Assembly (NCBI RefSeq): GCF_023221595.1
Contig: NZ_CP096563.1
Location: 4,160,001 to 4,224,000 of the forward strand
Origin: Rhodococcus qingshengii JCM 15477
GTDB taxonomy: Bacteria; Actinomycetota; Actinomycetes; Mycobacteriales; Mycobacteriaceae
DNA: 64,000 bases
Reading direction: 5' to 3'
Position 1 is the stretch's first letter, and every line of letters begins with the position of its first letter. The notes beneath the pieces were generated by a model. That model was not told where the DNA came from. It did no database searches and saw only the letters and a program-made list of their open reading frames with translations. The position numbers and the translations under genes are program-made. This document shows, piece after piece, positions 38,177 through 46,760 of this stretch.

Positions 38177-38548
38177 TCAGGCCTGGCCGGCTGCCGCGTT
38201 GATCGGTGCCATGTCGAAATAGTCGCGCCAGGCTTTGATCTTTCCGTCCTCGACTTCGAACACCCCCATGACCGGGAGCGCTACCTCGGCGCCGTTGATG
38301 GTGAAGACGTCGATGCGCTCGTTCATGACGGTGTTGCCGTCCGCGACCTGACGCTTGATCTGAAAGTCGATGTTGCCGAAGGCACCGACAAACTGCTCGA
38401 TGAACGCCCGGACGGCCTCGCGACCGACCACGGGCTCCATCGGAATGTTGTGATAAACGACGTCATCGGTGAAGTAGTCGACGATCTTTGCAACATCGGC
38501 GGCCGCCCACAGCGCGCAGAAATCGGTGATCAGTTTGTCCGATGTCAT
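38177..38548 (-). CDS. Limonene-1,2-epoxide hydrolase-like (NTF2-fold) protein
   Basis: The 123-residue protein has the small alpha+beta cone of the SnoaL/LEH superfamily. Landmarks shared with LEH are LITDFCALWAAADVAKIVDYF, DDVVYHNIPMEPVVGREAVRAF, and the C-terminal MGVFEVEDGKIKAWRDYFDM, whose Arg-Asp with an upstream Asp forms the catalytic set in limonene-epoxide hydrolase. I start at ATG 38548, which overlaps the cysQ stop (ATGA); the longer frame is shadow. It is the last gene of the cysD operon. Epoxide hydrolysis is plausible but the substrate is unknown. Confidence 0.82.
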   Translation of the reverse strand: MTSDKLITDFCALWAAADVAKIVDYFTDDVVYHNIPMEPVVGREAVRAFIEQFVGAFGNIDFQIKRQVADGNTVMNERIDVFTINGAEVALPVMGVFEVEDGKIKAWRDYFDMAPINAAAGQA

Positions 38549-39699
38549 TGTGTGCCAGCCTCTTTCGAATCGTCTTCGTGGGGTTCGATGATTGCCAGGA
38601 TGCTTTCGATCTCGCCTGCCGGTATCCCGAAGTACTCGGTCACGAAAACCGTGACGGCCGGTGCCTGGCCAGGTGTTCCGAGGTCGAGCAGATACCGGGC
38701 TACGACGCTGTCGCCCCACTCACGCAGCGCGAGTTCACGTATCGCCACGATTCCGCGATATTGCTGGCCTTGTTCGAGCTCGTTGCTGATGAAGGCGCCG
38801 CTGTCACCGGTTCGCTGACCGTTCTCGACCCGCCAGGCGTCGGCGGCGAAGCGGACCTTCGTTGCGTCATGAGTGAGCAATGCGTTCACGTATTCACGCG
38901 CCATGGCGACGCGTCCGCTGACCGCAGACTCCGTGGTGTGCTTGGCAATTGCGCCCAGGATCGACTCCGACAACTCCGGTCGGCAGATCACGAGATCCGG
39001 CAGGTACGGATGAGATTCGTTGTAGAGCAGCGGCGAACCGTCGATGCGGCTGCAATGCAGTCCCGCCGCCTGTGCGACGCCGACGGGCGCAGCCGAATCC
39101 CATTCCCACTGCCCACCGGCGTGCAGGTACGCGTCGACCTCGCCGCGCACCACCGCCATCGCCTTGGCGCCGGCCGATCCCATGTGCACCACGTCGGCGC
39201 CGAGTTCGGCTGCCACCGCTTCGGTGAATGCGGGTGGTCGCGATCCGCTGACTACTACGCGGAGCGGCGAGTTGGCGGCAACCGAAGCTGCCTCGTCGCC
39301 ACTGGAGTACACCGCTCCGAGCGCCGGCTGAGCAACCGCGGCTGCGGTAATTCCGCTATCGCGCTCCCAAAGCGCCACGTGCACTGCCCAATCCGCATGA
39401 TTCGGCAAGCCGTATTCCTTGGAGCCGTCCAGCGGATCGATGATCCAGACCCGAGCTGCATCCAGACGACTGCGATCGTCGGCAGATTCCTCAGAGAGCA
39501 CGGCATCGCCCGGCCGCTCGGCAGCCAACCGGTCGAGGATGTAGGAATCGGCGGCCTTGTCGCCCCGGCGGCCCAGTTCACGACCGTCGTCGACACCCAG
39601 ACCCTCGGCTCGGATCCCCAGGAGGATCGCACCGGCGGCCTGCGCCAATTCCGCCGCGAGTGCCTCGTCGGCGATTCTGCTGTGTGTGGATTCGCTCAC
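38545..39699 (-). CDS. cysQ: PAP phosphatase CysQ fused to a C-terminal NTF2-like domain
   Basis: Residues 1-255 are a CysQ-type inositol-monophosphatase-fold enzyme that removes the 3' phosphate of PAP (or PAPS). The metal ligands are visible: SEES (69-72), DPLDGSKE (88-95) and WDSAAP (200-205). Normal CysQ ends near residue 255. Here the frame continues through a second domain (about 266-384, AREYVNALLTHDATKVRFA to ESILAIIEPHEDDS) that resembles stand-alone actinobacterial NTF2-like proteins. The gene overlaps cysNC (GTGA) and the epoxide-hydrolase-like gene (ATGA). The fusion could be genuine or due to a missed stop in the assembly. Confidence 0.88.
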   Translation of the reverse strand: MSESTHSRIADEALAAELAQAAGAILLGIRAEGLGVDDGRELGRRGDKAADSYILDRLAAERPGDAVLSEESADDRSRLDAARVWIIDPLDGSKEYGLPNHADWAVHVALWERDSGITAAAVAQPALGAVYSSGDEAASVAANSPLRVVVSGSRPPAFTEAVAAELGADVVHMGSAGAKAMAVVRGEVDAYLHAGGQWEWDSAAPVGVAQAAGLHCSRIDGSPLLYNESHPYLPDLVICRPELSESILGAIAKHTTESAVSGRVAMAREYVNALLTHDATKVRFAADAWRVENGQRTGDSGAFISNELEQGQQYRGIVAIRELALREWGDSVVARYLLDLGTPGQAPAVTVFVTEYFGIPAGEIESILAIIEPHEDDSKEAGTQ

Positions 39700-45613: not shown

Positions 45614-45620
45614 GAGCACC

Positions 45621-46760
45621 ATGACTGAACGCACTCACGTCGGCACCGTCGAGGATCTCCATGCCTCGGCGACGCGGATGACCGGCCTGACGGACTTCGG
45701 CGTCGACGATTACACCGAAGCTCTGTCGGTCCTGCTCGAGTCTTACGACCGTGACGAGGATCTGACGCCCTTCGGCAGCAAGATCTCTCGGGTATTCCTT
45801 CGCGGCGCCCTGGTGGCCCGTCTGCTCAGCGAATCGGCGTGGAAGGAGCATCCGGAGCACGCCGACGTCAAGATCGAGCGGCCGATCTTCGTCACCGGAT
45901 TGCCACGGACGGGCACCACTGCCTTGCACCGCCTCCTCACGGTCGACCCGGCTCACCAGGGCCTCGAGATGTGGCTGACCGAGTTCCCTCAGCCTCGCCC
46001 GCGTCGCGATACGTGGGAATCGAACCAGGTCTTCGCCAAGATCGAGGAGACATTCGGTCAACACCACGTCGAGCATCCCGAATTCATGGGCGTGCACTAC
46101 ATGTCGGCCAGCGAAGTCGAAGAATGTTGGCAACTCTTGCGTCAGACGTTCAAGTCCGTGTCGTACGAGTGTCTGGCGAATCTACCCACGTACTCCGCAT
46201 GGCTGAAGGACCAGGAGTGGTCGAACGCCTATGCACGACACAAGAAGAACCTGCAGCTGATCGGTCTGCCCGATCAGGATCGACGGTGGGTCCTCAAGAA
46301 CCCGAGCCACCTGTTCGCGCTCGACGAATTGATGGAGGCGTACCCCGACGCGCTTGTCATTCAGACTCACCGCTCCCCTACGACGATCATTCCGTCGGTG
46401 TGCAGCCTGGCCGCCCAGGCGACAGAGGGTTGGTCGAACACGTTCACCGACAAGGTGATCGGCGAAAGTCAGCTCGAATTGTGGGCCAGGGGGCTCGAGC
46501 AGTTCGACAGTGCACGCGCACACCACAATCCCGCGCAGTTCATCGACGTCGACTATCAGGACTTCGTCACCGATCCGCTGGGAACCGTCGAGAACATCTA
46601 CACGCACTTCGACATCCCGTTGACAGCTGCCGCGCAGCAGTCGATGGAGGCCATGCACGAGGAAAGCCGCTCGGGTGCTCGCAAACCTTCGCACAAGTAC
46701 ACGCTCGAGGAGTTCGGTCTGACGAAGGAGCAGGTGGAAGAGCGATTCGGAACTCGCTGA
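45621..46760 (+). CDS. PAPS-dependent sulfotransferase
   Basis: The 379-residue protein has the sulfotransferase 5'-phosphosulfate loop TGLPRTGTTAL (92-102) and the 3'-phosphate motif THRSPTTIIPSVCSL with Arg251 and Ser259. His-rich and aromatic sequence between them likely forms the acceptor site. It belongs to the family of mycobacterial Stf-like and Rv3529c-like proteins. It starts at ATG 45621 after AGGAG. PAPS made by the neighbouring CysD/CysNC is the donor, and PAP would be removed by CysQ. The acceptor is unknown. Confidence 0.9.
   Translation: MTERTHVGTVEDLHASATRMTGLTDFGVDDYTEALSVLLESYDRDEDLTPFGSKISRVFLRGALVARLLSESAWKEHPEHADVKIERPIFVTGLPRTGTTALHRLLTVDPAHQGLEMWLTEFPQPRPRRDTWESNQVFAKIEETFGQHHVEHPEFMGVHYMSASEVEECWQLLRQTFKSVSYECLANLPTYSAWLKDQEWSNAYARHKKNLQLIGLPDQDRRWVLKNPSHLFALDELMEAYPDALVIQTHRSPTTIIPSVCSLAAQATEGWSNTFTDKVIGESQLELWARGLEQFDSARAHHNPAQFIDVDYQDFVTDPLGTVENIYTHFDIPLTAAAQQSMEAMHEESRSGARKPSHKYTLEEFGLTKEQVEERFGTR

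What the first reader, a model, noticed from the sequence alone, without database searches (positions are those of the whole stretch)
38177..46760. IclR-centred sulfation module with its own PAPS supply and PAP removal
Seen: cysD-cysNC (PAPS synthesis), cysQ (PAP phosphatase) and an epoxide-hydrolase-like gene form one overlapping operon. A divergent operon encodes a DUF1214 protein, an SDR and a PAPS-dependent sulfotransferase with intact PAPS motifs. An IclR gene lies between them with matching operators on both sides. Known: sulfotransferases use PAPS and are inhibited by PAP; Rv3531c-Rv3530c-Rv3529c is a similar DUF1214/SDR/sulfotransferase triad (from memory). Inference: this is a dedicated pathway that sulfates a small molecule or lipid, with donor synthesis and PAP clearance under the same regulator. 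I see no cysH, cysI or sulfate transporter here, which argues against simple sulfate assimilation.
Basis: partly seen in the sequence, partly recalled or inferred. Interest (0 to 1): 0.75.

Follow-up and report, generated by a model that had tools for sequence, protein, structure and literature searches.

The report
Sulfation module of steroid breakdown
A gene set that makes the sulfate donor PAPS, attaches sulfate to a molecule and clears the by-product carries binding sites for the bacterium's cholesterol-breakdown switch, and its sulfate-attaching enzyme nearly always travels with a steroid ring-cutting gene, which gives an unassigned cholesterol operon a testable job.

Summary
The genes are as described, with small corrections. 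The module makes PAPS (cysD, cysNC), clears PAP (cysQ) and carries a DUF1214-like/SDR/sulfotransferase triad. Both promoters carry a perfect KstR (cholesterol repressor) motif overlapping the -10, plus a second palindrome that occurs only twice in the 7.5 Mb genome and tracks with iclR. The KstR box recurs upstream of duf in 64 of 79 related loci and of cysD in 49 of 54. In 251 sampled genomes of the family, all 193 with the sulfotransferase also carry the steroid ring dioxygenase HsaC, and 193 of 201 HsaC genomes carry the sulfotransferase. In 9 of 12 fetched loci the triad (sdr missing in two) follows hsaA-hsaC-hsaB. The genome's three APS kinases each share a locus with a sulfotransferase gene. 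Best reading: a KstR/IclR-controlled sulfonation module that is a companion of steroid ring catabolism. The acceptor is unknown; the phenolic seco-steroid is my first guess. New variant of a known kind (a PAPS-fed cholesterol sulfation cluster is known in Bacteroides).

The parts
43662..44828 (+).
44831..45613 (+). short-chain dehydrogenase/reductase (260 aa)
   Evidence: NCBIfam PRK07890 423.3 bits, cut-off 258
45621..46760 (+). PAPS-dependent sulfotransferase, Sulfotransfer_3 family (379 aa)
   Evidence: PF13469 E=7e-59; PDB 2zq5 E=2.6e-160, residues 3-377 aligned (the name STF1/Rv3529c is recalled, the entry is called putative uncharacterized protein)
41540..42466 (-). cysD, ATP sulfurylase small subunit
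   Evidence: NCBIfam TIGR02039 451.8 bits, cut-off 396.6
39696..41540 (-). cysNC, ATP sulfurylase GTPase subunit fused to APS kinase (makes PAPS)
   Evidence: NF004035 967.7 bits, cut-off 715; PF01583 E=2e-67
38545..39699 (-). cysQ, PAP phosphatase with a conserved extra C-terminal stretch (about residues 255-375)
38177..38548 (-). small SnoaL / limonene-epoxide-hydrolase-like protein (123 aa)
   Evidence: PF12680 E=8e-23, PF07858 E=4e-22
42610..43545 (-). IclR-family regulator, most likely start at 43545
   Evidence: PF09339 E=9e-8; alternative start 43638
43557..43570 (.). KstR-type operator TAGAACGCGTTCTA in the triad promoter, overlapping the -10
   Evidence: motif as in PMC1995591
42567..42580 (.). 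KstR-type operator TAGAACTCGTTCTA in the cysD promoter, overlapping the -10
43600..43615 (.). candidate IclR operator GGTACATATTTGTACC, about 26 bp after the triad -10
   Evidence: co-occurrence with iclR
42519..42534 (.). candidate IclR operator GGTACATTTATGTACC, about 29 bp after the cysD -10
   Evidence: co-occurrence with iclR
43545..43574 (+). promoter-like TTGACC-18-TATTGT of the triad
   Evidence: consensus match only; 2 found in the region, 1.3 expected
42563..42592 (-). promoter-like TTGACC-18-TATTCT of the cysD operon
   Evidence: consensus match only

Best explanation
This is a sulfonation module that belongs to actinobacterial steroid (cholesterol) catabolism. KstR sits on both core promoters, and IclR probably on a second operator just downstream of each. 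Steroid-derived CoA thioesters release KstR and an unknown ligand releases IclR; then both operons are made together. CysD-CysNC turn sulfate into PAPS, the sulfotransferase moves the sulfonate onto a hydroxyl of a steroid-pathway intermediate, and CysQ removes the inhibitory PAP. The SDR probably makes or removes the hydroxyl. My first guess for the acceptor is the phenol/catechol A ring of the 9,10-seco-steroids (3-HSA or 3,4-DHSA), as a reversible protective conjugate, because the triad follows hsaA-hsaC-hsaB in one operon-like row in several genera. Shown by sequence: gene content, motifs, co-occurrence, operon-like arrangement. Inferred: regulator binding here, sulfonation activity, acceptor, roles of DUF and SDR.
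For: KstR itself is in the genome (E=5e-84 to solved KstR), and the site next to its gene is one of only 9 TAGAACNNGTTCTA sites in 7.5 Mb (reversed control 2), of which two flank iclR. Both boxes overlap the -10 by the same two bases, much as described for kstR/fadE34. The box is found upstream of duf in 64 of 79 loci and of cysD in 49 of 54. The Rv3531c/Rv3532 site binds KstR by EMSA, and its M. smegmatis counterpart MSMEG_5932 was de-repressed 6-fold in the kstR mutant (PMC1995591, passages). Rv3531c is listed as predicted to be required for growth on cholesterol (PMC6429209, passages). Sulfotransferase with HsaC: 193 of 193; with KstR: 191 of 193, in 251 sampled genomes. hsaA-hsaC-hsaB directly upstream of the triad in 9 of 12 fetched loci; sulfotransferase within 6 kb of HsaC in 23 of 132 genomes. 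cysD, cysNC and the triad in one direction in 8 Nocardia loci. PAP-phosphatase gene beside hsaACB-duf-stf in both g4 loci. APS kinases: three, each sharing a locus with a sulfotransferase gene. A paralogous cysQ-cysD-cysNC-sdr-stf-duf module next to a TetR gene lies in the same genome.
Against: No biochemical or expression data for this organism. The published core pathway degrades cholesterol without a sulfated intermediate (recalled). 15 of 79 loci lack the strict KstR motif near duf, among them all 8 Nocardia and both Tomitella loci; in genome G025 the whole module with iclR has no such motif in the 19.9 kb read. 8 HsaC genomes lack the sulfotransferase. With HsaD as marker the link was weaker: 70 of 193 sulfotransferase genomes had no HsaD over cut-off. 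Rv3529c and Rv3530c are listed without predicted need on cholesterol. The SDR is missing in both g4 loci and both Antrihabitans loci. CysH also passes two models named PAPS reductase, so its APS preference is not certain. Five steroid papers did not mention the sulfur terms I searched. Co-occurrence tests are not corrected for phylogeny.
Confidence: 0.7

Rival explanations
1. The triad sulfonates a non-steroid molecule (an envelope lipid, hopanoid, quinone or signal) that is needed when cells grow on steroids; the steroid link is regulatory only.
For: A mycobacterial sulfotransferase product is a sulfated menaquinone (PMC6469627, passage). The genome's third PAPS locus holds a trehalose 2-sulfotransferase. 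No substrate was tested.
Against: 193 of 193 co-occurrence with HsaC and the place right after hsaA-hsaC-hsaB in 9 of 12 fetched loci are more than shared regulation would require.
Confidence: 0.16
2. Sulfonation is catalytic chemistry, not conjugation: the SDR reduces a ketone, the sulfotransferase turns the alcohol into a leaving group, and the DUF1214-like protein or an NTF2-like partner eliminates sulfate, so the triad deoxygenates or dehydrates a steroid intermediate.
For: duf is in 79 and sdr in 77 of 80 sulfotransferase loci; a dedicated donor supply and PAP clearance suit stoichiometric flux. SnoaL-like genes recur beside the triad. Rv3531c is predicted to be required for growth on cholesterol. 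Sulfonation before elimination has a precedent in CurM (recalled).
Against: The DUF1214-like fold matches best to structures without a function in their titles. No gap in the known pathway calls for it (recalled). The SDR is absent in g4 and Antrihabitans loci.
Confidence: 0.1
3. The cysD-cysNC operon is a spare sulfate-assimilation set that happens to lie beside the triad.
For: CysD and CysN are the first assimilation enzymes. CysH also passes NF002537 and TIGR00434, both named phosphoadenylyl-sulfate reductase, so PAPS could feed assimilation.
Against: A cysI-cysH-cysD-cysN operon exists elsewhere and its CysN has no APS kinase; CysH also passes the APS-reductase model TIGR02055 and fails TIGR02057; cysD is near the triad in 62 of 80 loci.
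Confidence: 0.04

Closest known systems
Rv3531c operon (Rv3531c-Rv3530c-Rv3529c) of the M. tuberculosis KstR regulon
   Different: No cysDNC or cysQ beside it there (recalled) and no IclR (recalled); listed as hypothetical proteins and possible oxidoreductase (PMC6429209, passages). Here the donor supply and PAP removal carry the same operators.
Bacteroides BT_0411-BT_0416 cholesterol sulfation cluster
   Same: Putative PAPS-making genes next to a steroid sulfotransferase; BT_0412 and BT_0416 are induced by cholesterol; product cholesterol sulfate (PMC9417993, passages).
   Different: I know of no steroid ring breakdown in those gut anaerobes (recalled). Here the module carries KstR motifs, has the DUF1214-like and SDR partners, and travels with ring-cleavage genes; the product is unknown.
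Stf0 trehalose 2-sulfotransferase with cysD-cysNC (own genome, C1:147-151 kb)
   Same: A sulfotransferase beside its own cysD-cysNC.
   Different: Other sulfotransferase family (PF09037), with a sulfatase-family gene nearby and no triad partner found in that 16 kb.
Second paralogous module, own genome C1:1.760-1.768 Mb
   Same: cysQ, cysD, cysNC, SDR, sulfotransferase and DUF1214-like gene, 28-58% identical.
   Different: One row in another order next to a TetR gene, no KstR-type motif in the 19 kb locus, followed by a solute-binding protein and a luciferase-like monooxygenase.

Membership tests
KstR regulon | KstR present in the genome | tested here: met
   E=5e-84 to solved KstR; next to an acyl-CoA dehydrogenase-like ORF (by eye)
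KstR regulon | TnnAACnnGTTnnA operator overlapping the -10 of the target promoter | tested here: met
   both promoters; motif present in 64 of 79 and 49 of 54 loci; the -10s are consensus matches only
KstR regulon | Binding by KstR and de-repression in a kstR mutant | not testable with these tools
   reported for the Rv3531c site (EMSA) and MSMEG_5932 (RT-qPCR), PMC1995591, passages
PAPS-dependent sulfotransferase (Sulfotransfer_3) | Family match over cut-off with donor-binding P-loop | tested here: met
   PF13469 200.2 bits, cut-off 27; the VTGLPRTGTTALHRLL stretch is kept in 2zq5 with one change (its role is recalled)
PAPS-dependent sulfotransferase (Sulfotransfer_3) | PAPS binding and sulfonate transfer | not testable with these tools
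   no assay
CysQ PAP phosphatase | Fold and close similarity to a solved PAP phosphatase | tested here: met
CysQ PAP phosphatase | NCBIfam CysQ equivalog cut-off | tested here: not met
   91.8 of 228.8 bits; whether the model covers the actinobacterial branch was not tested
CysNC (PAPS synthesis) | CysN fused to APS kinase | tested here: met
   NF004035 967.7 bits, cut-off 715
DUF1214 family | PF06742 over gathering score | tested here: not met
   18.1 of 25 bits; the paralogue in L020 passes with 28.5
DUF1214 family | Same fold as solved DUF1254/DUF1214-type proteins (assignment of those entries recalled) | tested here: met
IclR-controlled operons | Regulator gene with a shared palindrome at its presumed target promoters | tested here: met
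   GGTACANNNNTGTACC only twice in the genome, reversed control 0; GTACn6GTAC upstream of duf in 35 of 49 loci with iclR and 2 of 31 without, upstream of cysD in 17 of 44 and 0 of 10
IclR-controlled operons | Binding of this IclR to the palindrome | not testable with these tools
   no assay
Sulfate assimilation operon | Linked cysH/cysI or sole cysDN copy | tested here: not met
   cysI-cysH-cysD-cysN lies in L022; cysD also in L020 and L021

The most novel reading that the evidence does not exclude
PAPS-driven sulfonation is a regular, so far unrecognised step of actinobacterial steroid ring catabolism: an intermediate is made into a sulfate ester that is then processed by the DUF1214-like protein (elimination or ring chemistry), not merely parked. 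The triad would then be a catabolic sulfonate-as-leaving-group cassette paid for by a KstR-controlled PAPS cycle.
Probability: 0.13. Interest if true: 0.88.

Novelty: new variant of a known kind. Interest (0 to 1): 0.64.

Why it matters
A KstR site upstream of Rv3531c was reported in 2007 and Rv3529c-Rv3531c are still listed as hypothetical proteins and a possible oxidoreductase among cholesterol genes in a 2019 table. Finding relatives that are fed by a PAPS cycle with the same operators, that follow hsaACB in one row, and that occur in 193 of 201 HsaC genomes of the sample turns an unknown operon into a direct question: which steroid intermediate is sulfonated, and why. An answer would bear on steroid bioconversion strains and on how these bacteria handle phenol and catechol steroids.

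Tried and rejected
HsaD as a marker of ring degradation looked like evidence against the steroid link (70 of 193 sulfotransferase genomes without HsaD over cut-off). I rejected HsaD as the marker after reading 12 of those loci: 9 carry kshA and hsaA-hsaC-hsaB next to the triad, and a tblastn with the own HsaD found no hsaD in any of the 12 (E<=1e-20). HsaC was used instead. One HsaC row (G049, E=8.5e-91) was dropped before the count, because every other listed row was at 1.5e-134 or better; it lacks the sulfotransferase.

The strict KstR motif within 350 bp of duf was seen in 7 of 8 'HsaD-plus' and 1 of 22 'HsaD-minus' genomes; in at least one of the latter (G017) the DUF match is not beside the sulfotransferase. 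In the 9 loci where the row starts at hsaA, 8 have a motif within 200 bp of the hsaA start; L157 does not.

Sulfate assimilation was considered and given low odds (0.04, raised from a draft 0.03 after I re-read: CysH passes NF002537 and TIGR00434, both named phosphoadenylyl-sulfate reductase, as well as the APS-reductase model TIGR02055; it fails TIGR02057). Two further weak PAPS_reduct matches on contig 6 were not examined.

Paper searches gave no listing that ties a sulfotransferase to actinobacterial steroid breakdown; two searches showed 15 of 39 and 15 of 38 papers, and most listed papers were not opened. Two listed papers that hold sulfotransferase terms were looked into by passage and are on other matters. 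Text searches in the main text of five steroid papers gave no mention of the sulfation terms tried. Most subscription journals are not held.

The fold of the CysQ C-terminal extension was not resolved: Pfam gave no match for it, and the structural lists were filled by the phosphatase domain. Its NTF2/DUF8021 resemblance is by eye.
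Full report

Two operators per promoter. A promoter scan of the region found two sigma-70-like sites (1.3 expected), one in front of each operon: TTGACC-18-TATTGT for the triad and TTGACC-18-TATTCT for cysD. In both, a perfect TAGAACNNGTTCTA palindrome overlaps the -10 by the same two bases. It occurs 9 times in the whole genome (reversed control 2); one of the others lies between the KstR gene and an acyl-CoA dehydrogenase-like ORF (the latter by eye). 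This is the KstR motif TnnAACnnGTTnnA, described as partly overlapping the -10 (PMC1995591, abstract and passages). Some 26-29 bp after each -10 lies GGTACANNNNTGTACC, found exactly twice in the genome, reversed control 0. A GTACn6GTAC palindrome upstream of duf is present in 35 of 49 loci with iclR and in 2 of 31 without, so it is the likely IclR site; upstream of cysD it is in 17 of 44 and 0 of 10. Neither binding event has been measured here.

Conservation. Of 102 relatives found, the best 80 loci were kept with up to 10 kb on each side. cysD is present in 62 of 80, duf in 79 and sdr in 77. The KstR box is upstream of duf in 64 of 79 loci and upstream of the minus-strand cysD in 49 of 54; besides Rhodococcus this includes loci of Saccharopolyspora (both promoters) and, at duf, of Actinomadura, Microtetraspora, Thermomonospora and Kibdelosporangium. 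The misses at duf are 8 Nocardia, 2 Tomitella, 2 Saccharopolyspora, 2 Actinomadura and 1 Rhodococcus locus. In the 8 Nocardia loci cysD-cysNC and the triad run in one direction.

The steroid link. In 251 genomes sampled from the same family, the sulfotransferase (E<=1e-60) is in 193, KstR (E<=1e-50) in 200 and HsaC (E<=1e-90) in 202, of which one weak row was dropped, leaving 201. All 193 sulfotransferase genomes have HsaC; 8 HsaC genomes lack it; 50 have neither. 191 of 193 have KstR. The genomes G049, G005, G073 and G018 lack all three although others of their genus have them (G049 has the dropped HsaC row), which argues for joint loss; no phylogenetic correction was made. In 9 of 12 fetched loci, from five unnamed genera, hsaA-hsaC-hsaB lie directly upstream of duf-(sdr)-stf on the same strand and kshA is divergent (tblastn with the own genome's proteins); a KstR-type motif lies within 200 bp of the hsaA start in 8 of 9. 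HsaA and HsaC pass their NCBIfam cut-offs in the three loci tested, L154, L156 and L158. These 12 loci were chosen from genomes with the sulfotransferase and without HsaD over cut-off, so the 9 of 12 is not a rate for the family; among 132 genomes with both places listed, the sulfotransferase lies within 6 kb of HsaC in 23. In both g4 loci the SDR is missing and a gene matching PAP phosphatase (E=4e-53 to M. tuberculosis CysQ for the L156 copy, the one searched; below the NCBIfam cut-off) sits beside the sulfotransferase. Thus the triad is tied to PAPS handling in some genera and to steroid ring enzymes in others.

Outside evidence. KstR bound the Rv3531c/Rv3532 site in EMSA, and MSMEG_5932, the M. 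smegmatis gene marked as its orthologue, was de-repressed 6-fold in the kstR mutant (PMC1995591, passages). Rv3531c is in a table as predicted to be required for growth on cholesterol, Rv3529c and Rv3530c are not (PMC6429209, passages).

PAPS here. The genome has cysD in four places (window, L020, L021, L022) plus cysH. The cysI-cysH-cysD-cysN operon has no APS kinase. Its CysH passes the APS-reductase model TIGR02055 (238.5 of 235.3 bits) and fails PAPS-reductase TIGR02057 (162.8 of 254.2), but it also passes NF002537 and TIGR00434, which are named phosphoadenylyl-sulfate reductase; the CC...CxxC cysteines speak for an APS reductase (recalled). The genome has exactly three APS kinases: this module, a paralogous module with the same six kinds of gene next to a TetR gene, and a cysD-cysNC next to a trehalose 2-sulfotransferase. 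Each shares a locus with a sulfotransferase gene.

Mechanism. Most likely, growth on sterols releases KstR (its ligands are early steroid CoA thioesters, PMC8228715, passages), an unknown signal releases IclR, and the cell then makes PAPS, sulfonates a steroid-pathway hydroxyl and clears PAP. The acceptor is not known. The phenolic A ring of 3-HSA or the catechol 3,4-DHSA is my first choice because of the hsaACB neighbourhood and because the SDR is missing in g4 and Antrihabitans; this part is inference and holds perhaps a third of the weight. Rivals are a non-steroid lipid acceptor and a catalytic sulfonate-then-eliminate scheme.

Known or new. A KstR site at the Rv3531c operon is known. A PAPS-fed, cholesterol-induced steroid sulfation cluster is known in Bacteroides (PMC9417993, passages). 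What I did not find in print, within the searches, is the KstR/IclR co-control of PAPS supply and PAP removal with the triad, its place behind hsaACB, and its near-constant company with HsaC. I rate it a new variant of a known kind.

Noticed in passing
L020 (own genome C1:1754000-1773000), about 6030-16486: A second, paralogous module next to a TetR gene: cysQ-cysD-cysNC-SDR-sulfotransferase-DUF1214-like, followed by a family-5 solute-binding protein and a luciferase-like monooxygenase.
   Followed up: partly
L021 (own genome C1:142000-158000), 3876-8915: Third PAPS locus: cysD-cysNC with a trehalose 2-sulfotransferase (Stf0) and a sulfatase-family gene.
   Followed up: partly
window 38545-39699 and relatives: CysQ carries a conserved C-terminal stretch of about 120 residues, absent in the two Antrihabitans copies (247 and 249 aa); by eye it looks NTF2-like, but Pfam gave no match.
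   Followed up: partly
L154-L160, L163, L164: The hsaA-hsaC-hsaB rows with the triad have no hsaD, and those genomes have no HsaD over the curated cut-off, so the ring hydrolase step may be done by another enzyme there.
   Followed up: partly
L071 7082-7624, L154 11316-11771; L081 and L103 by eye: A SnoaL_4/NTF2-like gene lies beside the triad in a Saccharopolyspora locus and genome G012, and by eye in Microtetraspora and Kibdelosporangium loci.
   Followed up: partly
window 32818-38167: A flavin hydroxylase-like gene, an MFS transporter, a MarR-type gene (these three by eye) and an alanine-dehydrogenase/PNT-like protein far below the alaDH cut-off lie just upstream; the last is found in only 7 of the 80 related loci, the closest ones.
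   Followed up: no
own genome C6:73049-73618 and C6:87635-88207: Two weaker PAPS_reduct-family matches on a 288 kb contig, not examined.
   Followed up: no
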